From Minisyncoccota bacterium (GTDB lineage Bacteria; Patescibacteriota; JACMRA01), in assembly GCA_014376695.1 (NCBI GenBank), contig JACMRA010000013.1, positions 1 to 58,555 on the forward strand: a stretch of DNA of 58,555 nt. Reading direction: 5' to 3'. The position numbers and the translations under genes were made by a program. Positions 4,547 to 58,555 of this stretch are shown here, one piece after another. Numbering within the stretch: position 1 is the stretch's first letter; the number at the start of each line of letters is the position of its first letter. The notes below the pieces were generated by a model. It was given only the letters and a program-made list of their open reading frames with translations, was not told the DNA's origin and did no database searches.

Positions 4547-4566
4547 CCGTAGTGATAACTTTGGAA

Positions 4567-4785: not shown

Positions 4786-4833
4786 CTAGTAATAAACCTA
4801 ATGAATTCCAACTGTAGCAAAAAGGCGTCGCAG

Positions 4834-12136: not shown

Positions 12137-12178
12137 TTAACGAAATTTGAAAACCTGCATCTGCTTATCTAAATTCAC

Positions 12179-12203
12179 GAGAACGATGGCATTCGTCGTT
12201 CTC
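12179..12203. terminator. hairpin between two small genes
   Basis: GAGAACGA and TCGTTCTC form a perfect 8-bp stem with a 9-nt loop, 42 nt after the stop of the secreted protein gene. The following T-run is weak (CATTCCTT), so termination is likely but not certain. Confidence 0.5.
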
Positions 12204-12221
12204 ATTCCTTAATGACAATTT

Positions 12222-12572
12222 ATGATTAATACAATTTTCACCTTGCTATCTTCTACTTTACTGAATCAAATTTTATTCGGTATTAATCTAGGTAATACCG
12301 CCCTGCCAAAGAAATTAATTTTTTCAAAATTTAATATAGGTTTCGGCTTCTTTTTCTCGGCAACTTTAATCGTAAATTTATTCTTTTATTATAATAACGG
12401 GCTTAAAAATGACTTATTGCTCACCTACGCCCTTTATTTCATTCTGTCTTTTTCGTTTCTTGGAACGTTAGTTTTTTATCTAAAAGCATTCTGGAGAGAA
12501 ATCATCAATATCGCCAAATTACAAATTTTCATCACAAGATTTGGTGTTGGGAGCGATAATTACACTCCTTAG
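12222..12572 (+). CDS. membrane protein, N-terminal part (probable frameshifted gene)
   Basis: This 116-residue hydrophobic protein has three likely helices and no recognised family. It ends at TAG 12570 while a second hydrophobic frame (+1) starts at 12541 inside it. The final residues (FGVGSDNYTP) are polar and out of character, as expected after a frameshift near 12535-12545. Together with the next ORF it would make one membrane protein of about 180 residues with five or six helices. Confidence 0.55.
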   Translation: MINTIFTLLSSTLLNQILFGINLGNTALPKKLIFSKFNIGFGFFFSATLIVNLFFYYNNGLKNDLLLTYALYFILSFSFLGTLVFYLKAFWREIINIAKLQIFITRFGVGSDNYTP

Positions 12573-12762
12573 CCCTCTCAATTACATCTCACCACTAATT
12601 TACGGCAATATAAATTGGTTGATATTGGGTGCTGTATATTTAGTTTTTGGTGCTATGGCTGTACTTCGATTAATATTTAGAACTAAGTTTAAATTTGGGA
12701 TTTATTACAGTATTCTAGTAGAGCTATTGTTAGTCTTAGGGTTGTATTTATTAATAAAGTAA
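12541..12762 (+). CDS. membrane protein, C-terminal part (probable frameshifted gene)
   Basis: These 73 codons form two clear hydrophobic helices (LVLGAIITLLSPL region and ILVELLLVLGLYLLI). The frame overlaps the preceding ORF by 32 bp. There is no promoter or ribosome-binding site, so translation as an independent gene is doubtful. It is most simply the second half of the 12222 gene. Confidence 0.5.
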   Translation: MVLGAIITLLSPLNYISPLIYGNINWLILGAVYLVFGAMAVLRLIFRTKFKFGIYYSILVELLLVLGLYLLIK

Positions 12763-12784
12763 GAATTAACCATAGAATTAACCG

Positions 12785-14245: not shown

Positions 14246-14388
14246 ATATTAGACAGCTTTAGCAGTATGCGTAATTGTGTCAAAAGCCCTAAGATTACAG
14301 GAAGAATTTACTTGCAATTTTACAAAGATCTTTTGTGATTTTCAATTGACAATTGGCAGTTTATGTGATTTGATGTAGATAGTTTTTA

Positions 14389-15690
14389 ATGAATTTTTCT
14401 GTTTTTATTGATATGAATAAGCTAAACACTGTTACTCAAAATATTCACTTTTACCTCAAAAATCTACGGGCAACCAATAAGTTGATTTACATTGCCTGTT
14501 TGTTATTTTGCCTAATGGTATTTGGGTTGATTAGCATTGTACAGCCTCATACAGAATTAATTCGCACCAGGGCGCAGAGCCAGCCTTGTCAAACGGGAAC
14601 CAATCAATATCAGATCTGCTACGCCGAGTATATCTCCCCACCTATTCTGGCAAGCGCCAATTCATCTTCGGCAACCCCACTTCTCCAATCTGTTCAAGTA
14701 GCCCAAAATACCCTTACTGACAAAGATTTTACAGTTTCTGTACCTGCCGAATCAGCTCCCAAATCAGCTGCGCCAACGCCAACGCCAGATCCCAAGCCCG
14801 TTGAAACGCCAAAACCCGTAGAAACGCCAAAACCCACCACAGATCCCACACCTGCCAAATCGGCAATCGTAAATTCTCAGGCTCAGCCCACCCCTAGTTC
14901 GGAACCAGTCAAGACCAGTGAACCAGCAATTGTGAGTAAATCGGAATCAGCTCCAACTAGTGCGCCAGAATTCGGACTCGGTCAGGCGGGGACGGTGGCA
15001 AGTATTGACTTATCAAAATCCGCCCAACCACCCAAAAATAACAGCAATAATTGGAGTTTTCTACTTATACAAAACTGGATTTACATTCTTGGCTCCATCA
15101 TCGCATTGCTGCTTATGATTTTGATTTTCTCAATTATTCGAGCTAGTCGCAAACGCACCAAACAAAATATCAAACCTGTCCCAACTAATAAAAAATCCCC
15201 AGATCTCGATAACTTGACTTATCGTCTCGACAATATGCCACCAGAGGTTGAAGCTAATTCCACTTCAGAATTTGATAATCCTTTTGAGGCCGTGGCCAAT
15301 ATACCCACTTTTGATAGTGATAATCTAAGCTTTGGTCCATCGACCCAATTCCCAAATCAGTCAAATGCAAGCCAACCCTTTGAACCAATTAATCCAATCT
15401 ATCTCCAAGAAATTCCAGCCCCTCAAATTACAAATCCAGCCCCAACTCTTAATGTCTCGGGTTACTCGTCGCTAATTCACGACCGTCTCAATCAGGTTAA
15501 ATCGGTACCCAAAGACCCTCAAAAACAAGCCCTTGATAATCAACTCTGGGCCGAATACAACCACTATTTGACTGGCAAAAGAAGCCGGCCGTTCCCTTTG
15601 ACCATCAAAGATAGAGTCTTTTTTGCGTATTCCTTGGCTTACATTACGGTCAAAGTCTATGTAGTTGACTGGGATCTCTGGGGAGAATAA
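14389..15690 (+). CDS. proline-rich bitopic membrane protein of unknown function
   Basis: The 433 residues contain a hydrophobic helix at about 32-52. A long Pro/Thr/Ser-rich region follows with a VETPKP repeat (residues about 125-160). A second helix lies at about 224-247 (IYILGSIIALLLMILIFSII). After a basic stretch comes a cytoplasmic Pro/Asn-rich part, and a conserved-looking last 75 residues rich in aromatics (AEYNHYLTGKRSRPFPLTI). The middle segment is therefore probably outside the cell. No enzyme motif is visible. It could be a cell-surface or envelope-spanning scaffold. Confidence 0.7.
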   Translation: MNFSVFIDMNKLNTVTQNIHFYLKNLRATNKLIYIACLLFCLMVFGLISIVQPHTELIRTRAQSQPCQTGTNQYQICYAEYISPPILASANSSSATPLLQSVQVAQNTLTDKDFTVSVPAESAPKSAAPTPTPDPKPVETPKPVETPKPTTDPTPAKSAIVNSQAQPTPSSEPVKTSEPAIVSKSESAPTSAPEFGLGQAGTVASIDLSKSAQPPKNNSNNWSFLLIQNWIYILGSIIALLLMILIFSIIRASRKRTKQNIKPVPTNKKSPDLDNLTYRLDNMPPEVEANSTSEFDNPFEAVANIPTFDSDNLSFGPSTQFPNQSNASQPFEPINPIYLQEIPAPQITNPAPTLNVSGYSSLIHDRLNQVKSVPKDPQKQALDNQLWAEYNHYLTGKRSRPFPLTIKDRVFFAYSLAYITVKVYVVDWDLWGE

Positions 15691-15714
15691 GCCTACCAAG
15701 AATTGACAAGTCGT

Positions 15715-16770
15715 TTAGTTTCCGATTATAAATTCGACTATATCACCGTCAAGCATTGGATAGTCTTTGCCAGCTAAATTCAGTTTACCGCCTGCAGTTA
15801 CGCCTTTCCAGCCACCAAGCTCAACAAAATCTTTGTATTTACAAACGCTGGCTTTAATAAACTTTTTTTCAAAATCGGTATGGATTTTGCCAGCACACTC
15901 CGGAGCCAGCATTCCGTTAGTAAACGTCCAGGCCCGAGCCTCTTTTTCGCCTACGGTTAGATAGGTGGATAGATTGAGTGTCTCGAAACATTTCTTGATT
16001 AGTTTATCTAGTCCGCTTTCTGGACTGACCCCAAGCTCAATCCTCTCCTCAATACTCATATCCGCAAGAGCCAGCTCTCCAGCAATATCCAACTCAAAGT
16101 CAGTAGCGTACTCGAAGTTGGCCGTATCCAAACTCACATTACACAGTCGCATAATCGGTTTATCAGTTAATAAATTGAGTCCTTTTCGCCATTTGATAAG
16201 ATCTTTGTCGGCGTTGGCTGGGCTTAATACCGTATTAGCTGGTTGGAGATTGACCACGGCTTGAAGCAACTCTTGGGCCAAATTAATTTTTTGACTGGCT
16301 AGGACATCTTTGCTGGTTTTGAGGTCTTTTTCGAGGCGAGTCATCATTTTCTCAAGCATTGATTGATCGGCCATTGTCAATTCCATCACTAGAATTTCTT
16401 CGTCTTCGCCTGGATTAACTCGATTTTCGACGTGAATTATATTATCATCCTCAAAACATCGAAGCACCATTAATATCATATCACACTCGCGAATATGGCT
16501 AAGGAATTGATTACCGAGCCCCGCTCCTTGTGAAGCTCCTTTGACAAGCCCCGCGATATCCTTGAACTCGATATTGGCGTAAATTGTCTTTTCGGCATTG
16601 GCCATTGCGGCCAGCTTTTCGAGCCGTGGATCGTGGACTGCTACCGTTCCATCGGTTGGATCAATGGTACAAAATGGGAAGTTAGCCACTGGCACAGTGT
16701 TCTTAGTAATAAGATTAAATAGGGATGATTTGCCCGCGTTAGGCAGGCCTACAAGTCCGACAGATAGCAT
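15715..16770 (-). CDS. ychF: ribosome-binding ATPase YchF
   Basis: This is an Obg-family P-loop protein that prefers ATP and associates with ribosomes. The 351-residue protein has GLVGLPNAGKSSLFN (G1), the FCTIDP switch, and DIAGLVKGASQGAGLGNQFL (G3 region). A helical insert and the C-terminal TGS domain (LTVGEKEARAWTFTNG to DGDIVEFIIGN) follow. The frame stays open to 16839, but YchF proteins begin two or three residues before the GLVGLPN motif, so the ATG at 16770 is chosen. It lies 70 nt after cysS on the same strand. Confidence 0.94.
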   Translation of the reverse strand: MLSVGLVGLPNAGKSSLFNLITKNTVPVANFPFCTIDPTDGTVAVHDPRLEKLAAMANAEKTIYANIEFKDIAGLVKGASQGAGLGNQFLSHIRECDMILMVLRCFEDDNIIHVENRVNPGEDEEILVMELTMADQSMLEKMMTRLEKDLKTSKDVLASQKINLAQELLQAVVNLQPANTVLSPANADKDLIKWRKGLNLLTDKPIMRLCNVSLDTANFEYATDFELDIAGELALADMSIEERIELGVSPESGLDKLIKKCFETLNLSTYLTVGEKEARAWTFTNGMLAPECAGKIHTDFEKKFIKASVCKYKDFVELGGWKGVTAGGKLNLAGKDYPMLDGDIVEFIIGN

Positions 16771-16840
16771 AGAACAAATTAGATTAATGGGATTATTTTT
16801 TGATATCAAAAGCCTATTAGAGAATAACCAAAAAGTCAAC

Positions 16841-18592
16841 CTAATCCATCAGCGTAGGATTCCACCACAGCCCATAACCCCAAGGATAATCATCTACTTG
16901 ATACCCAAGTTTAGCAATTTCAACCCTAAGTCTATCCGCTTCGGCCCAGTTTTTTACCTCTTTGGCTTGTTGTCGTTGAATTGCGAGAGTTTCAATTGTC
17001 CAATTGTCGCACCCGTCAAATAAATTTAAATTTAATAATCCTTTATCCATCCAATCAATTAAAACTGCAAAATCATGGAAGAAGTCCGCCTCGTCTAGAT
17101 TATCAATACTCAAGTCCCAATCTTCATGTTCTTTGTTATAGCTACCTTTAATTGAAGACTTAGATATGCTCCCGAAAAGTCTATTCATCTCATTTGTAAC
17201 AACTTCTAAAAACAGTGGAAAGTTTAGATTATTCACTAAATCTGATATAAGTTTATTATTATATTCTTGCATTTTGGGTAAACCTTTATCTTGGTCAGAG
17301 ATGCTAACATTAATATTTTGAACTACCTTTGATATTTTGGTACCCAGCTTCCGTAGGTTAAACAACCGAGCTTGGCTCTGGGCCAGCTTATCCCAAGTAA
17401 AGTCCATTTGCTGCGTGTAGTGGTGTTCCATCAACATCAATCGATAGGCCAAAGGGTCGAAGCCCTTAATCTTGAACTTGTCCTGAACTTCTTGCGGTGG
17501 ATTCTCCAGACTATAAAAGCCAGTATCCGCATACTTCCCAACCACCAAAAAAACATTACCAAGTGATTTACTCATCTTTTTACCGTTCACCAACACGAAT
17601 TTGTTATGTACCCAATACTTGGACAAATGAAACCCTAAGGCCTCAGACTGCAATATCTCGTTCTTGTGGTGGACATCGATATGATCCTCCCCGCCAAGAT
17701 GGAGATCGATAACTGTTTTATTCTTAAAAGGGTCAAAGCTAAAACTTGAATCCCCTCCAGCCCCCTCTATCAAGGGGGTATCTTGACCAGCAATAGCAGA
17801 TATCATAGCCACGCATTCGCTATGCCAGCCCGGGCAACCCCACTTTTCTAGAATTTCTCTATAACTCCCAGCAAGTACATCCTTCGCATCGAAAAAATCA
17901 ACAAAGCGCCACTTCTGCAAACTATCCGCGCTAACGAATTTCCAAAGCGCAAAATCACTTGGGTTTTTGGTGGTGTTCTTGGTATCTCTATCTGTGAATT
18001 GATTACTTTGGCCGGCTCGTTGCTTGGCTTGAGTTTCGAGTATAGTTCTAAGCGGCTCAGTAATTAAGAAATCAGAACTACCAAAAATCGCCTGATTATT
18101 ACTACTGTCAAAATAAATCCCGTCCTCCAACAAATAAGCCTTGTCAGCTATCAGCAACTCTAAACTCAGTATCATCTGCTCCTCGATATATTCGGTGGCC
18201 TTTGGTCGCATTATTCCCGTTGGAATTTCGATCCCGATGGCCTGACATTGCTTGAGATAATCATCGGTATAAAAGTTAATAATATCTTGCACGTTTTTGT
18301 TTTCGCGTTTAGCACCCTTTTCGAGTTTATCCTCACCGTCATCTCCATCGTCGACCAAATGACCAACATCGGTAATATTGCTAATCCACTGGGTGTGCCA
18401 GCCAGCCAGTTTCCCAACCCTAGCTATCGTATCCCCAAGCCAAGTCGCTCTAAGGTTCCCAATATGCATATAATTATAGACGGTTGGACCACAAGAATAT
18501 ATTTTTAGAGTGTTGCTGATTACAGTTTTGGCTGGGTCTAAAGTTATAATTTGTTTTTGGTAGCTATCAAAGAGTTGGATTGGCGTGGGCAT
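16841..18592 (-). CDS. cysS: cysteinyl-tRNA synthetase
   Basis: It charges tRNA-Cys. The 583-residue class I synthetase has CGPTVYNYMHIGNLR (HIGH box), GHLVDDGDDGEDK, GCPGWHSECVAM (zinc and cysteine site), and KKMSKSLGN (KMSKS box). A C-terminal helical domain ends in GYQVDDYPWGYGLWW. Relative to usual CysS there are about 20 extra residues (DTPLIEGAGGDSSFSFD and neighbours) between GWHSECVAM and the DLHLGGEDHIDVHH motif. Their DNA contains an 18-bp inverted repeat. The ATG at 18592 is preferred over an in-frame TTG at 18649, which would overlap the methyltransferase gene. Confidence 0.95.
   Translation of the reverse strand: MPTPIQLFDSYQKQIITLDPAKTVISNTLKIYSCGPTVYNYMHIGNLRATWLGDTIARVGKLAGWHTQWISNITDVGHLVDDGDDGEDKLEKGAKRENKNVQDIINFYTDDYLKQCQAIGIEIPTGIMRPKATEYIEEQMILSLELLIADKAYLLEDGIYFDSSNNQAIFGSSDFLITEPLRTILETQAKQRAGQSNQFTDRDTKNTTKNPSDFALWKFVSADSLQKWRFVDFFDAKDVLAGSYREILEKWGCPGWHSECVAMISAIAGQDTPLIEGAGGDSSFSFDPFKNKTVIDLHLGGEDHIDVHHKNEILQSEALGFHLSKYWVHNKFVLVNGKKMSKSLGNVFLVVGKYADTGFYSLENPPQEVQDKFKIKGFDPLAYRLMLMEHHYTQQMDFTWDKLAQSQARLFNLRKLGTKISKVVQNINVSISDQDKGLPKMQEYNNKLISDLVNNLNFPLFLEVVTNEMNRLFGSISKSSIKGSYNKEHEDWDLSIDNLDEADFFHDFAVLIDWMDKGLLNLNLFDGCDNWTIETLAIQRQQAKEVKNWAEADRLRVEIAKLGYQVDDYPWGYGLWWNPTLMD
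17761..17778. repeat. palindromic element inside cysS coding sequence
   Basis: CCCCCT and AGGGGG form 6-bp arms around a 6-nt loop. The element encodes the TPLIEGAGG stretch, which is extra relative to ordinary CysS. It resembles the palindromic insertions in the first two permeases at 41667 and 42592. Confidence 0.55.
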
Positions 18593-40844: not shown

Positions 40845-41630
40845 ATGACTCTTCTAAAATCTACCAACCTTTCCAAAACATTCACTGTCTACAAACGACT
40901 AGGACTGTTCAAACGTCAAAAAAAAGAAGTCGAAGCGATAACCGACTTTGACCTAGAAATCAATCAACCAATAATCTTCGGGCTGGTTGGACCAAACGGC
41001 GCTGGCAAAACCACTTTTATAAAGCACTGTCTTGGGCTAGTAGAAAAATCCGCGGGCCAAATTGAAGTCCTTGGCTACAATCCATACCTTCGAAAACCTG
41101 CTTTTCTCAAGCAAGTCGGCCTAGTTAGCGGTCAAAAACAGAACCTAGATCCCAACCTGTCGGCACTCGAATCCCTTCGCCTTTCTGGATATCTTTACGA
41201 TATGATGACGGCCGAAATTGAAGAGCGAATTAACTTTTTGGTAGACAAATTTGAGATTCGAGAAAAATTGGAGGTTCCAGTTAGACAATTATCCCTAGGT
41301 CAGCGAATGAAATTCGAAATTATCAGCTCCGTGTTACACTCCCCAAAATTTTTGTTTATGGACGAGCCAACCCTCGGCCTTGACTTTGACGCCCAGAATA
41401 TTATGCGATCGATGCTTTTGGAACTCCACCGCGAACAAGGCTTAACAATCCTACTTACAAGCCATTATCTGCCAGACATTACTTTGCTTTGCTCAAGGCT
41501 CGCCGTAATCGAAAAAGGCAAAAAAGTCTTTGAAGGTTCTTTGAGTGAGTTAATGCAAGAGAGTGGCAGAGACGGCTACCTCAAAACCCTAATCACCGAA
41601 CTCCAAAAAGAAGACAAAAAGAACGCTTAA
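40845..41630 (+). CDS. ABC transporter ATP-binding protein (COG4586-like)
   Basis: This 261-residue ATPase has Walker A LVGPNGAGKTTFIKH, Q-loop GLVSGQKQNL, signature LSLGQRMKFEI, Walker B FLFMDEPTLGLDF and H-loop LTSHYLPD. The N-terminal FKRQKKEVEAITDFDLEI and the GQKQ variant are typical of COG4586. In that group one ATPase usually works with two ABC-2 permeases (COG4587 and COG3694/DUF990). Here four paralogous permeases follow in the same direction, the first 9 nt downstream, so the ATPase probably energises alternative permease pairs. The substrate is unknown. Confidence 0.9.
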   Translation: MTLLKSTNLSKTFTVYKRLGLFKRQKKEVEAITDFDLEINQPIIFGLVGPNGAGKTTFIKHCLGLVEKSAGQIEVLGYNPYLRKPAFLKQVGLVSGQKQNLDPNLSALESLRLSGYLYDMMTAEIEERINFLVDKFEIREKLEVPVRQLSLGQRMKFEIISSVLHSPKFLFMDEPTLGLDFDAQNIMRSMLLELHREQGLTILLTSHYLPDITLLCSRLAVIEKGKKVFEGSLSELMQESGRDGYLKTLITELQKEDKKNA

Positions 41631-41639
41631 AACAAATTT

Positions 41640-42500
41640 ATGACTCATACAACCACGTATCCAAACTCTCCCTTTATAAAGGGAGATGGCCAGCGGCCAG
41701 AGGAATTAACCTACAAACCAACCTTCATGCAAAAACTCTTTGGGAGGAATTATAAATGGTGGTATATTTTTAAATTCTATTTTAACAAATCTTTAGCCTA
41801 TCGACTGAATTACTTTGCAATGATTGGGCGATATTTAATAACATTTTGTATTTTTGCTCTAATTTTATATCTGAAAGGAGGTAAAGAATCTCTTGATTAT
41901 TATATTTTGGCTTCCATTGGTTACTATTTCTATGTCATTTTTAATAATACTTCATTCGAAATGAAGGATGGTGTACTTTTTGGTAAATATAGTTACCATT
42001 TTTTATTGCCAACAAATATGCATTTAAAGTTTTATATTCAATCATTTGGAATGTTAGTGTTGCCTTTTATAATAAGATTTTTTATTTTTGTAGGGATAAT
42101 TTTAGCTTTGAAAATATCCATTATATTTAGTTTTAATCTTTTAATAGCCTTAATTCTGTCTGTTTGTTCCGCCGTTTTAATCGGTAACTTTTGGCAAACA
42201 ATTATAGGTTCCACATCTTTTTATCTCCCTGATAACAAATATATTTTGATGGGGACGGATGACTTAGTTCAACTTCTAACTGGTAGTTTAGTCCCTCTAG
42301 TTGGTGTCTTATCCTTTTTGCAATTTACACCCTGGTCTTGGATTATCCACCACCCAATGCAGATCTACCTCGGTAAATACGATTTTAATCAAACTTTAAT
42401 GGTCTTTGCTGGCGGGATTGCTTGGTGCGTTGTTCTATATTTCTTAGCCAAATGGATATTTAAGATGGGGTTGAAACGGAACGAGGCCGTGGGGCTGTAA
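41640..42500 (+). CDS. mosaic ABC-2 permease, copy 1
   Basis: This 286-residue, six-helix ABC-2 permease has a conserved entry segment (GRNYKWWY, residues about 36-43). The membrane core contains the MKDGVLFGKYSYHFLLPTN motif shared in form by all four copies. The last 50 residues (HPMQIYLGKYDFNQ to RNEAVGL) are nearly identical between copies. The 5' 128 bp match copy 2 with one mismatch while the core is highly divergent. Codons 7-24 (YPNSPFIKGDGQRPEELT) are an in-frame palindromic insertion absent from copies 3 and 4. Confidence 0.85.
   Translation: MTHTTTYPNSPFIKGDGQRPEELTYKPTFMQKLFGRNYKWWYIFKFYFNKSLAYRLNYFAMIGRYLITFCIFALILYLKGGKESLDYYILASIGYYFYVIFNNTSFEMKDGVLFGKYSYHFLLPTNMHLKFYIQSFGMLVLPFIIRFFIFVGIILALKISIIFSFNLLIALILSVCSAVLIGNFWQTIIGSTSFYLPDNKYILMGTDDLVQLLTGSLVPLVGVLSFLQFTPWSWIIHHPMQIYLGKYDFNQTLMVFAGGIAWCVVLYFLAKWIFKMGLKRNEAVGL
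41667..41699. repeat. palindromic insertion in permease copy 1
   Basis: A perfect 20-bp palindrome (TCTCCCTTTA plus its reverse complement, 41667-41686) is followed at once by TGGCC-AGC-GGCCA (41687-41699). The extra ~54 bp are in frame and absent in copies 3 and 4, where MTHTTT joins directly to YKPT. Confidence 0.75.
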
Positions 42501-42564
42501 GCTCACTATTGATAATAAACAACCAAAATAACCAATTCAAAATTACTAACGAAGCCTAAATTTT
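42351..42564 (+). repeat. conserved 3' end of permease gene plus spacer, copy 1
   Basis: The last 150 bp of the gene recur at the ends of the other three permease genes (43300-43449, 44183-44332, 45776-45925). The 64-bp intergenic spacer after copy 1 is also nearly repeated after copy 2 (43450-43513), ending in AAATTTT just before the ATG. Confidence 0.85.
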
Positions 42565-43449
42565 ATGACTCATACAACCACGTATCCAAACTCTCCCTTT
42601 ATAAAGGGAGATGGCCAGCGGCCAGAGGAATTAACCTACAAACCAACCTTCATGCAAAAACTCCTTGGGAGGAATTATAAATGGTGGTATATAGTAAAGC
42701 AAAGCTTTAAATCAAATACGACTTACCGCTATAATTCACTGGCTTGGTTGCTAAGTTCAATAGTTTTAGTTTTGGGAACTCTTACGGTTTGGTATATTAA
42801 TTACAGTCAAAGCGGAGTTTTATCACCAGATTTCAAAGAGATTTTTACATATTTTGTAATTGGCGAAGGGTTCATTTTTGCAAGTGCTATTCAATTCGAT
42901 ATTGGAGAAAATATTAAAGACGGTAAATTTTCTAACAAGCTCTTAATGCCGACAAATTATTTAAAGTACTATTTCTGTTACCAATTTGGCTATCAACTTT
43001 TTGAAAACCTTAGTAAGTTAATAGTTTATCTGGGGCTGGCTTTAGCACTAAATCAATTTCTCATTTTACCAACAATTCTAAATTTTTGTGCCTTTTTAAT
43101 CGCAATAGTTATAGCGTATTTATTAAATGTTGCAATCGGGATAATTATCGGTGGGTCAGCATTTTTTTTAACAGCATTTTTTGGGAGTGCCTCTTTATTT
43201 GACAGCCTGAGACTTGTTTTTAGTGGGCGTCTATTTCCTTTTAATAAATTAAATATTTTAAAACCACTAGCTTTCACTCCTTTTGCCTTTACTTTTTTCC
43301 ACCCAATGCAAATCTACCTCGGCAAATACCATTTTAATCAAACTTTAATGGTCTTTGCTGGTGGAATTGCTTGGTGCCTTGCCCTCTACTTCTTAGCCAA
43401 ATGGATATTCAAGATAGGATTGAAACGCAATGAGGCCGTGGGATTGTAA
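42565..43449 (+). CDS. mosaic ABC-2 permease, copy 2
   Basis: The 294 residues share the N-terminal ~43 residues and the palindromic insertion with copy 1, and the last 50 residues with all copies. The core (KQSFKSNTTYRYNSLAWLL onward, with the NIKDGKFSNKLLMPTN motif) is unrelated at DNA level to copy 1 but has the same ABC-2 topology. The C-terminal 150 bp are the most diverged of the four (for example KYHFNQ and FKIGLKRNEAVGL), suggesting the homogenising event is older here. It is translated without a Shine-Dalgarno. Confidence 0.85.
   Translation: MTHTTTYPNSPFIKGDGQRPEELTYKPTFMQKLLGRNYKWWYIVKQSFKSNTTYRYNSLAWLLSSIVLVLGTLTVWYINYSQSGVLSPDFKEIFTYFVIGEGFIFASAIQFDIGENIKDGKFSNKLLMPTNYLKYYFCYQFGYQLFENLSKLIVYLGLALALNQFLILPTILNFCAFLIAIVIAYLLNVAIGIIIGGSAFFLTAFFGSASLFDSLRLVFSGRLFPFNKLNILKPLAFTPFAFTFFHPMQIYLGKYHFNQTLMVFAGGIAWCLALYFLAKWIFKIGLKRNEAVGL
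42592..42624. repeat. palindromic insertion in permease copy 2
   Basis: It is identical to the element in copy 1 (20-bp palindrome 42592-42611, then TGGCC-AGC-GGCCA), exactly 925 bp downstream. Confidence 0.75.
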
Positions 43450-43513
43450 GCTCACTATTTATAATAAATAACCAAAATAACAAATCCGAAATTATTAACG
43501 AAACCCAAATTTT
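43300..43513 (+). repeat. conserved 3' end of permease gene plus spacer, copy 2
   Basis: Same 150-bp coding end and 64-bp spacer as at 42351-42564, with scattered substitutions. Confidence 0.8.
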
Positions 43514-44332
43514 ATGACCCATACAACCACCTACAAACCAACCTTAATGCAATCACTCCTTGGGAGGAATTACAAATGGTGGTATGCGTTATTATATAAT
43601 TTAAATCTATCCTTAGCTTATTCTTTTAGCTCTATTTTCGCCTTGTTTCGAGATTTGTTACCGCTAGCCATCTCCTTGCTGATCTATGGAAAGTATTCTA
43701 CTACAAATGAATACGCTATTTATTTTATTATTGGTAATGTTTTTTTAAAAACCTGTGGGCTTGTTTGGGATATAAGTTGGGATTTTCGAGCAGATATTAA
43801 AAATGGCTCAATAACCACCAAAATGTTAAAACCGAGTAGTTTGTTAGGGCAATACCTTGTCGTTTCACTCGGTGCTAATTTATATTCCTATTTAATCAAT
43901 ATTTTGATCGCGGTAATTATGTTAATTGGTGGCGGATTAATATCATCTATACCTCTAAATTTCAATATATTGCCAGCCGTTCTATTAATTCTGGTCGGGG
44001 ATGTTATATTTTTCTTTATTGAAGTTATCGTTGGATCTTGTGCTTTTTTTGTTAGAGAGACAAATACTCTAATTGAAACTAAAAATAGTCTAATACCATT
44101 TCTTGCTGGTGCGCTATTTTTCTTAAATACAAACTCATTTACTAGCAATTTTATTTTTCTACCTTTTGCTTTTGCAGTCCACCATCCAATGCAGATCTAC
44201 CTTGGTAAATACGATTTTAACCAAACCCTAATGGTTTTTGCTGGTGGAATTGCTTGGTGTGTTGTCCTCTATTTCTTAGCCAAATGGATATTTAAGATGG
44301 GGTTGAAACGGAATGAGGCCGTGGGGCTGTAA
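43514..44332 (+). CDS. mosaic ABC-2 permease, copy 3
   Basis: This 272-residue permease has the short N-terminus (MTHTTTYKPTLMQSLLGRN) without the palindromic insertion. The core (LAYSFSSIFALFRDLLPLA, ADIKNGSITTKMLKPSS) is distinct from the other copies. The final 150 bp (44183-44332) are almost the same as in copies 1 and 4. About 27 nt after its stop lies the promoter and operator of the VapBC pair, which separates it from copy 4. Confidence 0.85.
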   Translation: MTHTTTYKPTLMQSLLGRNYKWWYALLYNLNLSLAYSFSSIFALFRDLLPLAISLLIYGKYSTTNEYAIYFIIGNVFLKTCGLVWDISWDFRADIKNGSITTKMLKPSSLLGQYLVVSLGANLYSYLINILIAVIMLIGGGLISSIPLNFNILPAVLLILVGDVIFFFIEVIVGSCAFFVRETNTLIETKNSLIPFLAGALFFLNTNSFTSNFIFLPFAFAVHHPMQIYLGKYDFNQTLMVFAGGIAWCVVLYFLAKWIFKMGLKRNEAVGL

Positions 44333-44359
44333 GAACCCAATCCCTCCCAAAGCCTGTTC

Positions 44360-44397
44360 TTGACAGTAAAGCATAAATTGGGTAATCTGGTATTACC
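44360..44397 (+). promoter_or_regulatory. vapBC promoter with overlapping operator
   Basis: TTGACA (44360-44365), 17 bp, TAATCT (44383-44388). The inverted repeat GGTAAT-CTGGT-ATTACC (44381-44397) covers the -10 box and the start site. That is where a ribbon-helix-helix antitoxin would bind to repress its own operon. Confidence 0.6.
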
Positions 44398-44427
44398 GTA
44401 AAATAAAGTTATTAATTATAACCATTT

Positions 44428-44697
44428 ATGACCACCTCTGTAAGTACAATTAGTCTAAAGCTCCCAACTATCATCAAAGCGCAATTAGCCAAAACAGCCA
44501 AAACCCAGCGACAAACTGTTAGCCAATACCTTAGAAGTATCATTATGGACAAATTAAATCTAAGCGTAAAGCAAAAAAGTCCGTTCTTGGATATCGCTGG
44601 GACTATGACAGGAGCCGAATCCGTGGCAATGCTAGAGCAGATACAGAACAATAGACAAAACCGTAAATCGGATTATTGGCATAATTTAATCGGCTAA
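44428..44697 (+). CDS. ribbon-helix-helix antitoxin (VapB-like)
   Basis: This 89-residue protein has an N-terminal beta strand (STISLKLP) and two helices (IIKAQLAKTAKTQ, TVSQYLRSIIMDKL), the layout of RHH/CopG-type antitoxins. A C-terminal tail that would wrap the toxin follows. The gene stop is 4 bp before the PIN toxin ATG. It is presumed to repress its promoter through the palindrome at 44381-44397. Confidence 0.8.
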   Translation: MTTSVSTISLKLPTIIKAQLAKTAKTQRQTVSQYLRSIIMDKLNLSVKQKSPFLDIAGTMTGAESVAMLEQIQNNRQNRKSDYWHNLIG

Positions 44698-44701
44698 AGC
44701 T

Positions 44702-45106
44702 ATGTATTTATTGGATACTAATATAATTAGCTTTATAGCCAAAAATCACATGGCGACCATTAATAAATTAGAGAGTGTTGATGGGGATCAAGTCTCCACC
44801 TGCTCCATTGTTATGAGTGAGTTATTTTTTGGAGCCGTTAATCATCCCGACCCAGTTAGAGGTAAAATTCACCTACAAAATTACTCCAAGCTTTCGTCCC
44901 AAACTTTGATCTATGATTTTGATATTGAGGCGGCAATGACATTTGCCCAACTAAAATCCCAACTAAAAAAAACTGGCATAGTAATCGATGATTTCGACCT
45001 TCTCATCGGCTCAATTGCCTTGGCTAATGATTTAATCTTGGTAACTAATAACACTAAGCACTTTGCCAAAATTCCAAATCTGCGATTAGAAGACTGGAGT
45101 AAATAA
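44702..45106 (+). CDS. PIN-domain ribonuclease toxin (VapC-like)
   Basis: The 134 residues form a PIN domain. YLLDTNIISFI provides the first acid, CSIVMSELFFGA the conserved Ser-Glu, and DDFDLLIGSIALANDLILVTNNTKHF the acidic pair and the final T/N-N motif. VapC toxins usually cut tRNA or rRNA. The stop lies 9 nt before permease copy 4, so the toxin and that permease are probably co-transcribed, which is unusual. Confidence 0.88.
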   Translation: MYLLDTNIISFIAKNHMATINKLESVDGDQVSTCSIVMSELFFGAVNHPDPVRGKIHLQNYSKLSSQTLIYDFDIEAAMTFAQLKSQLKKTGIVIDDFDLLIGSIALANDLILVTNNTKHFAKIPNLRLEDWSK

Positions 45107-45115
45107 AAACTGTAA

Positions 45116-45925
45116 ATGTCCAGTGCCGCAATTACCAAACCAACCTTAATGCAATCGCTCCTTGGGAGGAATTATAAATGGTGGTATATAGGGCTGTTTA
45201 CAATAAAACAAAATTTTAATTATTTTTGGGATGAAATATTCACTTCATTTTATAGATTTGTTTATCTGATTGGCTTAATTACTCTTGGAACGCACAATAA
45301 TGACAATCCGAGCTTTGTTAAATATCTTTTGATCGGGAGCGTATTTTATGCATGTACAGAATCATTTATTGTTTGGCAATTAGGTGAAGAGATAAAATCA
45401 GGCAAAATTATTAATGTTTTGTTGAAGCCAGTTAATTACATTACTTACAATGCCGTTATCGGCTTATTTAAATGTGTGAATGTCTTTTTTAGCTATTTAC
45501 CATGGATGGCCATTCTGTTTTTCATATATAAACCAAATTTAATAGAAGATATTAGGAATATTTGGGTTTTCATTTTGTTTTATTTGATTAGTTGGTTTAT
45601 TCGGATGATGTTTGATTTCATTTTTGCTTTTGGTGCCTTCTGGTTTACTGAGTATCAAGGTTTGTCGTACTTAGATTATAACGGTGCAAGTTTCTTATCT
45701 GGTTCGTTATTCCCATTAGTCTATCTGTCTAATAATCCACTGTTAATCTACAACCCTTTTGCGTTTACCTTTTACCACCCAATGCAGATCTACCTTGGTA
45801 AATACGATTTTAACCAAACTTTAATGGTTTTTGCCGGTGGGATTACTTGGTGTATTGCCCTCTATTTCTTAGCCAAATGGGTATTTAAGATGGGTCTCAA
45901 ACGGAATGAAGCTGTGGGACTGTAA
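45116..45925 (+). CDS. mosaic ABC-2 permease, copy 4
   Basis: The 269 residues begin with a different leader (MSSAAITKPTLMQSLLGRN) but rejoin the shared segment GRNYKWWY. The core (KQNFNYFWDEIFTSFYRF, GEEIKSGKIINVLLKPVN) is unlike the other copies at DNA level, while the last 150 bp (45776-45925) are nearly the same. It depends for transcription on vapBC read-through or on an unseen promoter. It is probably an alternative partner for the ATPase at 40.8 kb. Confidence 0.85.
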   Translation: MSSAAITKPTLMQSLLGRNYKWWYIGLFTIKQNFNYFWDEIFTSFYRFVYLIGLITLGTHNNDNPSFVKYLLIGSVFYACTESFIVWQLGEEIKSGKIINVLLKPVNYITYNAVIGLFKCVNVFFSYLPWMAILFFIYKPNLIEDIRNIWVFILFYLISWFIRMMFDFIFAFGAFWFTEYQGLSYLDYNGASFLSGSLFPLVYLSNNPLLIYNPFAFTFYHPMQIYLGKYDFNQTLMVFAGGITWCIALYFLAKWVFKMGLKRNEAVGL

Positions 45926-45950
45926 GGACGGAATGCCTCCTGAGCAAAGC

Positions 45951-45973
45951 GCCGAGGCTGTGGGATTGTAAGG
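45951..45973 (+). repeat. remnant of a fifth permease 3' end
   Basis: GAGGCTGTGGGATTGTAAGG repeats the final codons (EAVGL, stop) of the permease genes 48 bp after the stop of copy 4. It looks like a scar of a deleted or rearranged further copy. Confidence 0.6.
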
Positions 45974-46825: not shown

Positions 46826-49336
46826 ATGACACCTAACCAAGTTTCTATCACAACCATTTTGGACGCTAATCGAAGCGGCCTTTCCAGCCTAATTGACAGC
46901 CAAATCATAACTGATAATACAATTTCTCGACTTCCTGATAACGTCAATCAAGACGATTTAGAAGGGCTTTTGGCAAGTATTTGCGCCTCCCTAGCCAACA
47001 AACACCCGGATTATTCTATTTTAGCTGGAAGAATTGCCATGGCCAAGTTGCACCGCCATCTAGCAGTTGATAAAGTTAGTTTCGTGGACAATCTCCAGCG
47101 ACAATACGACCAAATGATCGGCAAAAAACGATCCACTCGGATTTCAACCGAGGTAATGGAATTTTGTCGCAAGTATGCAAGTGAGTTGCAAGAAATTATC
47201 GATTATTCGGCTGATTTTGATAACTATGATTACTCGGCTTTTCAATCGTATTACCGAAAATCCCTGCGTCAGATTGACAATGTTGTTGTCGAAACCCCTA
47301 ATCAAATGTTTCTACGAGTTGCCGTGGGCATCCATATCCCTAAGCTTCGCTCCAAACTTGAACTAGATTCGTTCGAGGAATATGCAGGCTTTCGGCCTCA
47401 AACTTACCGATTAATGACCATTACCGATGAGCAGCGATTAATCGAAATCAAAAACTATTACAAAGAACTAAGCCAGCGAAAAATCTCACCCCAGAGTCCA
47501 ATTATCGTCCACGCCGGCAGCCAAATGAATCAAATGCCGTCATGCTACCTTCAATATTGTGGAGATTCTATGAGCGGTAGTAGCCACGGCGAAGACACTT
47601 ATTCAGTCGACGGCAAGGTCAAAGGTATTTTTGGGGCTTTGGCCCAGATGGCTAGCCAAGGCAAATCTGGCGGAGCCACCGGTGTCAATATTAGCGATGT
47701 TCGCTCCAGCGGTAGCTATATCAACAAGACAGGCGGTTATTCCAATGGAATTTTACCTTTTATGAAGATTTTTGATTCCAGTATTGCCGCCGTTAATCAA
47801 GGCGGGCGTCGCGCGGGGGTTTGCACTCTTTATATCGAGCCTTGGCACAAGGATATTCTGGACTTTCTTGATGCTGGCGACCATTTTAGTATCGAGGAGA
47901 AACGCTGTAAGAATATCTTTTTTGCTCTTTACACCAATGATCTCTTTTTTGAACGATTAATCGCTGACAAAGGCAAAGCTAAATGGACTATCTTCGATCC
48001 CGCTGTAATTGTAAATCGCCTTGGTTACTCACTCTCGGATGTCTTTGGCGAGGACTTCAAACGCGATTATTCACTCCTTGAGAGCGAAGGACTTGGCGAG
48101 ACAATTAGCCTGATGGAAATCTGGAATCGAGTCTGCAAATTGCTCCAGATTAGCGGTAACCCTTATATTGTCCATAAGGACTCAATAAACGCCAAATCCA
48201 ACCAAAAAAATATCGGCGTAATCAAAGGCTCTAATGTCTGCTGTGAAGTGGCCCTAGTCTCAAGCGAAGATGAAACAGGTGTTTGCGTTCTCTCGTCCAT
48301 TGCCCTGCCCAAATATGTCAACAAAACCACCAAATCAATGGATTGGGAAGCCCTAATCGAGTCAGCCCGTATCGCAACACGCAGCCTAAATAATGTAATT
48401 GACATCCAGCACTATCCAACTCCCGAAACTCGCAACTCGTGCCTCAGATCGCGGGCTATTGGAATTGGTGCCCAAGGGTTAGCGGATGTTTTTGCAATGC
48501 TCAAGATGGACTTCGATAGCTTAGAGGCCAAAAAGCTTAACAAGGCCATTTACGAAGCTATTTATTATGGCTGCCTAGATGAATCGGCCAATCTTGCCAA
48601 GTTAGAAGGTGCTTATGATTATTACAAAGGCTCGCCAATCTCTAAGGGTATCCTCCAATATGATATGTGGGGAGTTAAAGATTCTGAGACATTTTTGGGA
48701 GCTGACAAATGGACAGCCTTAAGAAACAAAATCCAGCAATACGGCGTCCGCAACAGCGAAGTAACCGCTCTAATGCCAACGGCTTCCAGCTCAATTCGCA
48801 TGGGAAACACCGAAATGCACGAACCATTTACCCGCAACATCTATATAAGGCAGTACATCGGCGGGTCGATCAAAGTGATTAACACCCATCTAGTTAGCGA
48901 CTTGGTTGAACTAGGATTATGGGACGATTATATGTGCCAGCAAATTATCAATAACGACGGTTCTGTCCAAGGTATCGAGGCAATACCGGATGACATTCGC
49001 TCAAGGTACAGAACGGCCTACGAACTAGGGTTCAAGGATTTGATTGGTATGATGGCTGATCGCTCCCCTTTTGTCAGTCAAGCTAGTAGCTTTAATCACC
49101 ATATAACTTACGCCGATAGCTCACCAACTGCCTTCACCCAGAGAATCATCTACGCCTGGAAATCTGGGCTCAAGACGCTTTCCTACTATATCCACACGGA
49201 GACTGCCAGCAACGCCAAACGCGAATTAGGCGGAGTTCAATTAACCAAACCCGAACCAATTCGAACCCCCGAACCACAAATCCAAGACGGCGCAGCCTGC
49301 AATATGGAAGAGGACTGCGAGGTGTGTAGTAGTTAG
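46826..49336 (+). CDS. nrdA: ribonucleoside-diphosphate reductase, class I alpha subunit
   Basis: It makes deoxyribonucleotides. The 836 residues contain MNQMPSCYLQYCGD (first redox cysteine), GGATGVNISDVRSSGS, and GSNVCCEVAL (active-site Cys and Glu). Further boxes are LMPTASSSIRMGNTEMHEP, GLKTLSYYIHTET (radical-transfer Tyr pair) and the C-terminal CEVCSS (mobile cysteine pair). This is the class I pattern. An N-terminal ATP-cone is not obvious, so overall activity control may be absent. No nrdB is adjacent. The last 60 bp recur imperfectly at 50494. Confidence 0.93.
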   Translation: MTPNQVSITTILDANRSGLSSLIDSQIITDNTISRLPDNVNQDDLEGLLASICASLANKHPDYSILAGRIAMAKLHRHLAVDKVSFVDNLQRQYDQMIGKKRSTRISTEVMEFCRKYASELQEIIDYSADFDNYDYSAFQSYYRKSLRQIDNVVVETPNQMFLRVAVGIHIPKLRSKLELDSFEEYAGFRPQTYRLMTITDEQRLIEIKNYYKELSQRKISPQSPIIVHAGSQMNQMPSCYLQYCGDSMSGSSHGEDTYSVDGKVKGIFGALAQMASQGKSGGATGVNISDVRSSGSYINKTGGYSNGILPFMKIFDSSIAAVNQGGRRAGVCTLYIEPWHKDILDFLDAGDHFSIEEKRCKNIFFALYTNDLFFERLIADKGKAKWTIFDPAVIVNRLGYSLSDVFGEDFKRDYSLLESEGLGETISLMEIWNRVCKLLQISGNPYIVHKDSINAKSNQKNIGVIKGSNVCCEVALVSSEDETGVCVLSSIALPKYVNKTTKSMDWEALIESARIATRSLNNVIDIQHYPTPETRNSCLRSRAIGIGAQGLADVFAMLKMDFDSLEAKKLNKAIYEAIYYGCLDESANLAKLEGAYDYYKGSPISKGILQYDMWGVKDSETFLGADKWTALRNKIQQYGVRNSEVTALMPTASSSIRMGNTEMHEPFTRNIYIRQYIGGSIKVINTHLVSDLVELGLWDDYMCQQIINNDGSVQGIEAIPDDIRSRYRTAYELGFKDLIGMMADRSPFVSQASSFNHHITYADSSPTAFTQRIIYAWKSGLKTLSYYIHTETASNAKRELGGVQLTKPEPIRTPEPQIQDGAACNMEEDCEVCSS

Positions 49337-49427: not shown

Positions 49428-50471
49428 ATGACTAAGAATACAGATCAGGCAGAATTTTTTAATCATTATAAAATAGGTATGGAAAAACAATTTACAACAA
49501 CAGATATATTAACTCAACTTAATGTAATTAAGGAAAGGGCTATGGAGATTTTGAGTCAAGCTACTCCTGAGTCCTACACATTCTTAGCTCTAGATACTCG
49601 CAAAAAGCGCGCAATTTCTTTGCAGAGGATTCTATCTAATTTAAAACTTAGAGCTACGCAAAATGGCCAAATGGAGATATCTCAATTTAAAGAAGTCAAA
49701 AAAATAATTAAACAAATCAAGTTGGAAAACTGGTCGAAGCAAGCTAAAGAGTACCCGATTATAAAAGCAAGTAAAACTAAACAAGAAGTTTACGAAAATA
49801 CAGACCCGTATTCTGAGATACCATTTTTGGAACCACGAGATTATATGGGTATTTCTAAGGATCAGAATTTTGACTTAGATGACTTATCTCTAGTAACTGC
49901 ATTGACACCTCCTGGCTACACTCAACCTTGGCATTACCATACAGATAGCTATGAAGTGAATTTTTATGAAGGACAAAGCCAAGCCTTATACAAAAAGGAT
50001 GGGAATGAAGTGCAATTAAATATGCAATTGGGTGACTATGCATTTATCCATCCGAATACAAATCATACTATTAGAAATACATCTCTTTTACCAATTAGAA
50101 ATTGCTCGGTTAAAGTTCCAAACGCGCTAAAAGACAGAGGTGAAGACGAAAATTATCGAGTTGACGGTATTGGCGATAAACTGAGTATGATCAATATGGG
50201 CGGAGGTATTAGTGAAATTAATTTCTCACAAAAAAGTAATGAAATACCCTATATAACTCGATTATATCGCATTGATAAAACAACAATTACAATACGTTCA
50301 AATAACGATTCAATTCTTTATGTTCTCAAGGGTGGCTTTGAATCTTATATTGCCAATAAGACGGATGTTCTATCTCAATCAGATGTAATTATACTAGACT
50401 CAGACAACCCTGAAATTATAATTAAAAATCTCACTGGCGATGGTTTAATATATCAAATCGAAAAAGCATAA
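49428..50471 (+). CDS. bicupin-like protein inserted after nrdA
   Basis: This 347-residue protein has a helical first 115 residues followed by two cupin-like beta-barrel regions. In the first, PWHYHTDSYEVNFYEG and GDYAFIHPNTNHTI give the His-His-Glu-His metal pattern. In the second (residues about 260-345) metal ligands are not evident. The function is unknown; a dioxygenase, isomerase or sensor is possible. The gene is AT-richer than nrdA and lies exactly between the two copies of the nrdA 3' end, which suggests acquisition by recombination. Confidence 0.7.
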   Translation: MTKNTDQAEFFNHYKIGMEKQFTTTDILTQLNVIKERAMEILSQATPESYTFLALDTRKKRAISLQRILSNLKLRATQNGQMEISQFKEVKKIIKQIKLENWSKQAKEYPIIKASKTKQEVYENTDPYSEIPFLEPRDYMGISKDQNFDLDDLSLVTALTPPGYTQPWHYHTDSYEVNFYEGQSQALYKKDGNEVQLNMQLGDYAFIHPNTNHTIRNTSLLPIRNCSVKVPNALKDRGEDENYRVDGIGDKLSMINMGGGISEINFSQKSNEIPYITRLYRIDKTTITIRSNNDSILYVLKGGFESYIANKTDVLSQSDVIILDSDNPEIIIKNLTGDGLIYQIEKA

Positions 50472-50493: not shown

Positions 50494-50551
50494 AAATCCA
50501 AGACGGCGCAGCCTGCAATATGGAAGAGGTGTGCGGTTTGTAGTAGTTAGG
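50494..50551 (+). repeat. direct repeat, copy 2 (decayed nrdA 3' end)
   Basis: It starts with 36 identical bases, then has a short divergent part lacking 2 bp, then the shared TGTAGTAGTTAGG. It would encode QDGAACNMEEVCGL and a stop, so the CxxC redox tail is lost and it is non-functional. Confidence 0.85.
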
Positions 50552-56618: not shown

Positions 56619-58555
56619 TTATTTATTTTTGGATGAGCTGCGTGTTATGCCTGTTCCAATCATTCCGAGAATTGAGAGAGTCATAAGAGTAATAACACTT
56701 CCAGCACTTCGACTACCAGTTCCAACCAAACTTGTTACAGTTACTGGTGCAGGAGTTGCTACACTAGTAGCTCCAGTATTAACAACTTTGATTGTCATAA
56801 GTCCTGGGCCGAATGGATCTCGAATGTTGCCAACTGTGCTATCATCGTCGCCTGCTTGGTTATCGGTGATCGAGAAGCTTGATGTAACAACTGATTTAGA
56901 ACCAACGGTTTGGGAACCAACGGTTACGTTACTCCAAGTTTGGTAACTGCCGCCGATGTACTTTCTCCACTTGTATTGACTTGGATTAGTCATATCGTGC
57001 CAGAAGTAAGTAAGGTTGACAGTTTTGCCACAAGGTGCTTCAAATCCGAGAAGTCCAAATGGGTAACTAAAGTCAGGGTCTAGTTTTGGCATGTCAGCTC
57101 CGTTATAAGTTTTGACCATCTTAAGGATTTGACATTCTCCACTGGCAACGATAGTGACATATTTACCATCAGAATTCTTGATAGTTGCAACGTTGGGTTG
57201 GAATTTGTCAGGGATATTGTCGCCATTACCATCGCCGTTGTTTGGGCCAGCGTTTTCAATCGAATCGATTACGCCATCGCCGTCTGTATCGCAGGTATTA
57301 GTTGCAACACAGGCAATGTCGAGAACTGGATTAACTACAGGAGCATTGATGACAACGGGATTTGAAACTGTTCCTGCTGGGTTAGACTGAGTTGCAGAGA
57401 TAACATTTGGGTTAGTTCCAATTGGTAGTGAGTTAGTTGGGGTTGCTGTGAATGTACCGTTTGTACATGCTGTTGTTTGGGCTACACCATTAATTGTTAT
57501 AGTTACCGTATTTCCAGTTACACAAGTTCCAGAAATAACTGGGGTTGGATTTGTATTGGTTACTGGGATAGGGTTAACTGTTACAGGAGCCACTGAAGTT
57601 TTGATAGTGAAACCACAAGGCGCTGTCGCAGGAGAAACAATACCTGATGAATCTTTTTGTGTTGCGGTGATTGAGTAATCGCCATCAGCAAGTACGGGAT
57701 GTAAATAAGTCCATTGACCCATTGCGTCTGCTGTAATAATATGAGTATGACCTGTTGGAGTCATCGAAATTGTAATGGTTGCATTTGGTAGGCCTGTTCC
57801 GGAGAATGTAGGAGTACTACTAGAAAGTGTGCTTCCACAAGCTGGGCCACTAACTACTGGCGCCGCTGGTGGGGTTGGGTAAGTTCGTACTGCAACTGGT
57901 CCGCTAATTACAACTGGAGTTGAAAGTGTTCCGATTGGATTGGACTGGATGACCGAGATAGCATTTGTGTTAGCTCCAATTGGTAGTGGGTTAGTTGGAA
58001 CTACTGAGAATGTGCCGTTTGCACACGTTGTTGTCTGAGCTGAGCCGTTAATTGTTACGGTTACTGTATTTCCGCTTACACAAGTTCCAGAGATTGCTGG
58101 GGTTGGGTTTGTGTTAGTTGTTGGAATTGGATTAACTGTTACAGGTGCTACTGGAGTTTTGATAGTAAAAGCACAAGGCGCTGTCGCAGGTGAAATATTA
58201 CCAGATTGATCTTTTTGTGTTGCGGTGATCGAGTAATTACCATCAGCAAGTACGGGATGTAAATAAGTCCATTGACCCATTGCGTCTGCTGTAATAATAT
58301 GAGTATGACCTGTTGGAGTCATTGAGATGGTTATGGTCGCGTTTGGTTGAGCTGTACCAGAGAATGTAGGAGTATTACTAGAAAGTGTGCTTCCACAAGC
58401 TGGGCCACTGATCATAGGTGCTGCTGGTGTAACTAATGCTGGTGCAGCAACTGGAGCATTAATGACAACTGGGGTTGAAACTGTTGCTGCTGGATTAGTT
58501 TGGGTTACCGAAATAGCATTTGGGTTGGCTCCAACTGGTAGTGGGTTAGTTGGGG
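56619..58555 (-). CDS. large repetitive surface protein (5' end beyond the window)
   Basis: The frame is open to the window edge, so the N-terminus is missing. It consists of repeated Ig-like adhesin units (GPACGSTLSS, TPTGHTHIITADAMGQWTYL, NPTPAISGTCVSGNTVTVTI). A calcium-type segment (DTDGDGVIDSIENAG, GDGNGDNIPD) follows, then a 'choice-of-anchor U'-like domain (FGLLGFEAPCGKTV, SITDNQAGDDDSTVG). The end has LVGTG, a hydrophobic helix and a basic tail (RSSSKNK), which resembles a sortase sorting signal with LVGTG in place of LPxTG. It is probably displayed on the surface and used for adhesion. Confidence 0.82.
   Translation of the reverse strand, partial: PTNPLPVGANPNAISVTQTNPAATVSTPVVINAPVAAPALVTPAAPMISGPACGSTLSSNTPTFSGTAQPNATITISMTPTGHTHIITADAMGQWTYLHPVLADGNYSITATQKDQSGNISPATAPCAFTIKTPVAPVTVNPIPTTNTNPTPAISGTCVSGNTVTVTINGSAQTTTCANGTFSVVPTNPLPIGANTNAISVIQSNPIGTLSTPVVISGPVAVRTYPTPPAAPVVSGPACGSTLSSSTPTFSGTGLPNATITISMTPTGHTHIITADAMGQWTYLHPVLADGDYSITATQKDSSGIVSPATAPCGFTIKTSVAPVTVNPIPVTNTNPTPVISGTCVTGNTVTITINGVAQTTACTNGTFTATPTNSLPIGTNPNVISATQSNPAGTVSNPVVINAPVVNPVLDIACVATNTCDTDGDGVIDSIENAGPNNGDGNGDNIPDKFQPNVATIKNSDGKYVTIVASGECQILKMVKTYNGADMPKLDPDFSYPFGLLGFEAPCGKTVNLTYFWHDMTNPSQYKWRKYIGGSYQTWSNVTVGSQTVGSKSVVTSSFSITDNQAGDDDSTVGNIRDPFGPGLMTIKVVNTGATSVATPAPVTVTSLVGTGSRSAGSVITLMTLSILGMIGTGITRSSSKNK
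57301..58555 (-). repeat. 558-bp tandem repeats in the surface protein gene
   Basis: Segments 558 bp apart (for example 57691 and 58249) are almost identical over more than 100 bp. At least two full units and part of a third are seen before the window ends. Each unit encodes 186 residues made of two Ig-like modules. Confidence 0.85.

What the first reader, a model, noticed from the sequence alone, without database searches (positions are those of the whole stretch)
40845..45973. Four-permease mosaic array behind one ABC ATPase, with constant ends and variable cores
Seen: the last 150 bp of four adjacent permease genes are nearly identical, and the entry segment (GRNYKWWY) is also shared. The 64-bp spacer is duplicated between copies 1-2 and 2-3. 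Copies 1 and 2 share 128 bp at the 5' end with one mismatch. The roughly 200-codon membrane cores are highly diverged, and a fifth 3'-end scar sits at 45951. Known: ABC systems of the COG4586/4587/3694 type normally have one ATPase and two permeases. Inference: conserved flanks act as recombination or gene-conversion tracts. These would shuffle substrate-determining cores, or keep the ATPase-facing and C-terminal parts uniform while the cores diversify for heteromeric pairing.
Basis: partly seen in the sequence, partly recalled or inferred. Interest (0 to 1): 0.8.

Follow-up and report, generated by a model that had tools for sequence, protein, structure and literature searches.

The report
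Four exporter genes with shared ends
A small, uncultured bacterium carries one membrane-pump motor gene followed by four channel genes whose two ends have been copied between them by recombination while their middles are about as different as those of unrelated species, so one motor may serve several different channels.

Summary
One ABC-2 ATPase (40845-41630) is followed by four permease genes; three match Pfam PF06182 and the fourth aligns with them. Their first 24-42 and last 49 codons are alike (C-ends 85-92% DNA identity), while the ~200-codon cores are only 16-29% identical in protein.

Protein-level selection alone does not explain this. At codons encoding the same residue, cores share the synonymous codon about as often as chance (0.34-0.50), as does the ATPase against its orthologue in another genus (0.40). 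The ends share it at 0.60-1.00. So the ends share DNA ancestry younger than that genus split; the cores do not. A non-coding 64-bp spacer is also duplicated (56/64).

The cores are unusually AT-rich for this genome; the ends are not. None of 18 permease pairs from 10 other genomes of the phylum shows shared ends, and the two relatives with the locus hold one permease each.

Best reading: end-restricted gene conversion in a tandem array with divergent cores. Capture of foreign cores through the shared ends is a live rival. Active shuffling is not shown: no core moved between copies, no silent copies were found, and no population data were available.

The parts
40845..41630 (+). ABC-2 type ATPase, 261 aa, Walker A GPNGAGKTT, signature LSLGQ, Walker B FLFMDEP
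   Evidence: PF00005 E 4e-22; drrA-like in NCBIfam, below the cut-off; translation
41640..42500 (+). permease copy 1 (c1), 286 aa; core about 41766-42350, most diverged
   Evidence: no Pfam match of its own
41655..41708 (+). 54-nt in-frame insert of c1, with palindrome CTCCCTTTATAAAGGGAG
42501..42564 (+). 64-bp spacer c1-c2
   Evidence: 56/64 identical to the c2-c3 spacer
42565..43449 (+). permease copy 2 (c2), 294 aa; core nearest to the single permeases of G003 and G004
   Evidence: PF06182 E 2e-14
42580..42633 (+). the same 54-nt insert in c2
43450..43513 (+). 64-bp spacer c2-c3
43514..44332 (+). permease copy 3 (c3), 272 aa
   Evidence: PF06182 E 1e-14
44428..44697 (+). VapB/RelB-like antitoxin, inserted between c3 and c4
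   Evidence: weak DUF6290 and RelB-type matches
44702..45106 (+). VapC-like PIN toxin
   Evidence: PF01850 E 3e-12; VapC models E 4e-33
45116..45925 (+). permease copy 4 (c4), 269 aa; first codons differ (MSSAA) beside the VapBC pair
   Evidence: PF06182 E 6e-14
45954..45972 (+). scar: extra copy of the permease 3' end

Best explanation
This is an ABC-2 exporter operon expanded to one ATPase and four permeases. Shown: the two ends of the permeases and one spacer share DNA-level ancestry much younger than that of the cores. Inferred mechanism: homologous recombination between neighbouring copies (gene conversion, possibly unequal crossover) keeps rewriting the ends and stops at the edge of the diverged cores, while selection keeps four intact, different cores. 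Inferred function: permeases with uniform ends and different membrane cores pair on, or alternate with, one ATPase, so one motor serves several substrates or a heteromeric exporter.
For: Codon identity at residue-identical codons: cores 0.34-0.50 (chance 0.34-0.45), ATPase against G004 orthologue 0.40 (chance 0.37), C-ends 0.60-0.75, N-ends 0.86-1.0. Non-coding spacer duplicated at 56/64. c1/c2 N-ends without synonymous difference, with a shared insert unique to them. Borders identical in all six pairs and sharp. C-end path lengths 0.12-0.14 between copies against 1.4-1.5 to relatives; in cores c2 is nearer to G003 and G004 (2.2-2.4) than to c1, c3, c4 (3.6-4.2). All four frames intact. RecA encoded. 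Not a family trait: 18 other pairs show none of it.
Against: The low GC3 of the cores (0.22-0.29 against a genome mean of 0.37) is not predicted by end conversion. The borders show no erosion, which long-term conversion would be expected to leave. Incongruence of topology is not significant: four cores as one clade is not rejected (p-AU 0.127). Mosaic tracts inside the C-end are not significant by permutation. Function is inferred from gene content alone.
Confidence: 0.6

Rival explanations
1. Core capture: the array arose by duplication of one gene, and AT-rich cores from other strains or species then replaced the original cores by recombination across the shared ends, so the locus is a core-exchange site.
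For: Cores are AT-rich for this genome: amino-acid-stratified odds of GC3 0.56 against all sampled genes, z -6.9, ends 1.3; C-end minus core GC3 is +0.28, +0.22, +0.19, +0.09 against mean -0.02, sd 0.07 in 47 other permeases. Sharp uneroded borders. ComEC and RecA are encoded, so DNA uptake and recombination are plausible.
Against: No donor was found; the cores group with the family's own permeases (84/90); donor DNA next to the cores should have brought diverged end sequence, but the ends are most alike right at the borders; c4's composition shift is weak.
Confidence: 0.27
2. Selection alone: old paralogues whose ends are conserved because the protein ends are functionally constrained, with no DNA exchange.
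For: C-ends have almost no protein change (dN 0-0.05) beside dS 0.43-0.93, and LYFLAK..FK.GLKRNEAVGL is partly kept in G004.
Against: Codon identity in the ends far above chance, duplicated non-coding spacer, and ends of other phylum arrays not conserved.
Confidence: 0.06
3. Assembly artefact: variants of one locus from several strains strung together by the assembler.
For: Draft genome in 16 contigs; c1 and c2 share 134 bp at 98.5%.
Against: Ends and spacers differ by 8-15% between copies, and the order includes unique sequence (VapBC, different c4 start), so a tandem join by shared k-mers is unlikely except between c1 and c2.
Confidence: 0.04
4. Programmed cassette system in which the border blocks act as specific recombination sites.
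For: Highest identity lies at the core borders.
Against: No silent or inverted copies in the assembly, no recombinase gene recognised beside the array, all four copies are complete genes.
Confidence: 0.03

Closest known systems
ABC-2 exporters of the PF06182 (ABC2_membrane_6) type, usually annotated as one ATPase plus two permeases (COG4586/4587/3694; COG assignment from general knowledge, not tested)
   Same: ATPase and three of four permeases match by profile; gene order ATPase then permeases
   Different: Four permeases on one ATPase, with shared ends; other sampled genomes of the phylum hold at most three matches
TLR1/TLR6 partial gene conversion (PMC2077338)
   Same: Tandem paralogues in which one part is kept alike by gene conversion while the rest diverges
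   Different: Mammalian receptors, one end only, orthologues in nine species prove recurrence; here a bacterial exporter, both ends, four copies, no orthologous array
GOT1 paralogues of Tigriopus (PMC3728101)
   Same: Islands of high divergence beside converted regions within one gene
   Different: Much lower divergence and a population data set
Concerted evolution of prokaryotic paralogues (PMC6053082)
   Same: Paralogues of one genome more alike than orthologues
   Different: Catalogued for genes as units; here confined to gene ends

Membership tests
ABC-2 exporter, PF06182 type | ATPase with intact ABC motifs | tested here: met
   PF00005 E 4e-22; motifs in the translation
ABC-2 exporter, PF06182 type | Permeases match PF06182 | tested here: met
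   c2, c3, c4 above the gathering score; c1 has no match but aligns over its length
ABC-2 exporter, PF06182 type | Two permease genes per ATPase | tested here: not met
   Four here; one in G003 and G004
ABC-2 exporter, PF06182 type | Export of a substrate | not testable with these tools
   No assay and no characterised close homologue found
Concerted evolution by gene conversion | Paralogues more alike than to orthologues | tested here: met
   Ends: 0.12-0.14 against 1.4-1.5; cores: not met, c2 nearer to G003 and G004
Concerted evolution by gene conversion | Likeness extends to synonymous or non-coding sites | tested here: met
Concerted evolution by gene conversion | Conflicting tree topologies between gene parts | tested here: inconclusive
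   p-AU 0.127 for the four cores as one clade
Cassette or phase-variation system | Silent or partial donor copies, inverted sites or a dedicated recombinase | tested here: not met
   Only four copies of each end in the 78%-complete assembly, all on one strand, besides one 19-nt scar
Cassette or phase-variation system | Variation in order or content within a population | not testable with these tools
   No second genome of the genus was held; no metagenome scan available

The most novel reading that the evidence does not exclude
The locus is a core-exchange site: the conserved ends are homology arms through which a bacterium able to take up DNA captures different, AT-rich transporter cores from other strains and keeps them in tandem under one ATPase, giving a modular exporter repertoire.
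Probability: 0.25. Interest if true: 0.75.

Novelty: new variant of a known kind. Interest (0 to 1): 0.47.

Why it matters
Partial gene conversion that keeps one part of tandem paralogues uniform while the rest diverges is documented for a few animal genes. A bacterial transporter array with both ends homogenised and cores at saturation would give a compact test of how one motor ATPase is shared among channels, and of whether shared ends serve as entry points for new channel cores in small, gene-poor genomes. If the cores prove to be imported, the locus is a natural example of modular exporter assembly.

Tried and rejected
AlphaFold2 of c2 with the four-copy alignment gave pLDDT 43, so the ends could not be placed on a fold and no fold search was run. 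No solved homologue by sequence; the single hit (9r1o, E 0.014) is weak. Genus, order and class searches added no relatives beyond the six genomes of the family. A viral contig scan found no relative. Mosaic tracts inside the C-end (c1 and c3 share the last 60 bp at 98%) were not significant by permutation (p 0.08). Literature searches for COG4586/4587/3694 and for the Synechocystis viologen exporter gene names found no papers. The deletion in G004's broken permease ends near the core/C-end border, but both sides carry an AF(x)F motif, so I read it as a repeat-mediated deletion, not as support for a special site. The Shine-Dalgarno-like GGGAGG...ATG inside the N-end block is out of frame and absent in G004; treated as coincidence. 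GC-biased gene conversion could raise GC3 in the ends but does not explain cores below the genome average.

Full report
What is there. The window belongs to a 0.96-Mb draft genome in 16 contigs, 78% complete; a family member found in a public collection is a MAG labelled 'candidate division SR1'. An ABC-2 ATPase (40845-41630) is followed on the same strand by four permease genes, c1-c4. c2, c3 and c4 match PF06182 above the Pfam cut-off; c1 has no match of its own but aligns with the others over its length. A VapBC-like pair sits between c3 and c4. FtsA lies upstream in the opposite direction; a hypothetical protein and a ribonucleotide reductase lie downstream.

The pattern. A codon alignment shows three zones: an N-end (24 codons, 42 in c1 and c2), a core of 195-203 codons, and a 49-codon C-end. 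DNA identity is high in both ends and 0.2-0.6 in the core. The borders are sharp and common to all six pairs: mean identity drops from 1.00 to 0.33 between adjacent 9-bp bins after NYKWWY, and rises from 0.50 to 0.94 at HPMQIY. Core protein identity between copies is 16-29%, about the same as to permeases of other families of the phylum. c2's core is closest (32%) to the single permease of G003, and the broken permease of G004 is closest to c2 (31%).

Not selection alone. At codons where both copies encode the same residue (Met and Trp left out), the chance of the same codon is 0.34-0.41 by genome usage and up to 0.50 by the usage of the permease cores. Cores give 0.34-0.50. The ATPase against its 78%-identical orthologue in G004 gives 0.40, so that split is already saturated. 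C-ends give 0.60-0.75 and N-ends 0.86-1.0, z 2.8 to 7.8. The ends therefore share DNA ancestry younger than the split from G004. The 64-bp non-coding spacer is duplicated at 56/64. c1 and c2 share their N-end without any synonymous difference, including an insert with an 18-nt palindrome found only there in the assembly. The homogenisation looks like several events of different age: N-end c1/c2 recent, spacer intermediate, C-ends older (33-53% of synonymous sites differ).

How unusual. A profile search of 380 genomes of the phylum found matches in 68; only the window's genome has more than three. Eighteen permease pairs from ten other genomes show last-50-codon DNA identity of 0.37-0.60 against 0.85-0.92 here. 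In the family, G003 has one permease and an ATPase with an apparent frameshift; G004 has an ATPase with a changed first Walker A glycine and one permease broken by a stop and a deletion; three genomes have none. All family genomes are incomplete, so absence is weak evidence.

Composition. Core GC3 is 0.22-0.29 and C-end GC3 0.39-0.50. Stratified by amino acid, the cores have odds 0.54-0.56 against sampled membrane or all genes of the same genome (z about -7), while the ends are slightly above average (1.2-1.3, z 1.4-2.2). The 22 other sampled membrane genes all have GC3 of 0.29 or more. In 47 other permeases the C-end minus core difference averages -0.02 (sd 0.07, maximum 0.19), versus +0.28, +0.22, +0.19 and +0.09 here. 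Two readings remain: imported cores, or native cores that drifted towards AT while conversion (perhaps GC-biased) kept the ends near or above the genome average. The second does not by itself explain cores below the genome average.

Trees. The core tree puts the four cores and the two family permeases together (84/90), with long branches for c1, c3 and c4 (1.9-2.5) and a shorter one for c2 (0.79). Four cores as one clade is not rejected (p-AU 0.127). The C-end tree puts the four copies on one side of a branch (100/78), 0.12-0.14 from c2, with the relatives at 1.4-1.5. The contrast in distance is large; the contrast in topology is not proven.

Mechanism. Best supported: recombination between tandem copies rewrites the ends and is blocked by core divergence. 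RecA and ComEC are encoded. I prefer old paralogues with end conversion (0.6) over core capture (0.27), mainly because the cores group with the family and no donor was seen; composition and uneroded borders keep capture alive. The function (one ATPase serving several permeases singly or in pairs) is an inference from gene content only.

Known parallels. TLR1/TLR6 (PMC2077338) and GOT1 (PMC3728101) show partial conversion beside diverging regions; concerted evolution of prokaryotic paralogues is catalogued (PMC6053082). I found no description of both ends of four bacterial permeases being homogenised, though the paper library is partial.

A side observation that may bear on the array. In the 367 kb of this genome that I read, three housekeeping genes (ribonucleotide reductase, a comM-like gene, a class I tRNA synthetase) are followed within about 3 kb by short same-strand copies of their own 3' ends with other DNA in between; the same search gave no isolated copies for internal gene segments. 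The fifth permease tail at 45954 looks like the same kind of scar. Insertion by one-sided homologous recombination, as in homology-facilitated illegitimate recombination (PMC3240628, abstract seen), could produce this, but it is untested.

Noticed in passing
window 49278-49336 and 50494-50551: The 3' end of the ribonucleotide reductase gene is copied (92% over 60 bp) 1.2 kb downstream, with an AT-rich cupin gene (49428-50471, GC3 0.26) in between; looks like an insertion that duplicated the gene tail.
   Followed up: partly
L118 (G000:C16) 13460-18061: The tail of a comM-like (Mg-chelatase/ChlI) gene is copied twice downstream (49 bp at 92%, 29 bp at 97%), with a TPR segment and another gene segment in between: gene tail, insert, tail, insert, tail.
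   Followed up: partly
L112 (G000:C10) 1088-4923 and L110 (G000:C8) 11842-14751: Degenerate copies of the tails of a class I tRNA synthetase gene (71% over 73 bp) and of a PIN-domain gene (91% over 75 bp) lie near the parent genes.
   Followed up: partly
L116 (G000:C14) 11842-13545: A 136-bp identical repeat joins a longer gene to a fragment whose C-terminal part matches the polymorphic toxin domain Ntox17; looks like a displaced toxin-tip cassette.
   Followed up: no
L016 7986-9645: In a family member the same ATPase has a changed Walker A (VPNGVGKTT) and its only permease has a stop codon and a core deletion: a decaying copy of the system.
   Followed up: yes
L016 and window: The relative is labelled candidate division SR1, a group said to read TGA as glycine, but genes in both loci read well with the standard bacterial code; label or code deserves a check.
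   Followed up: no
window 56619-58555: A gene for an Ig-like-domain protein with long internal DNA repeats (82% over 651 bp) lies near the contig end.
   Followed up: no
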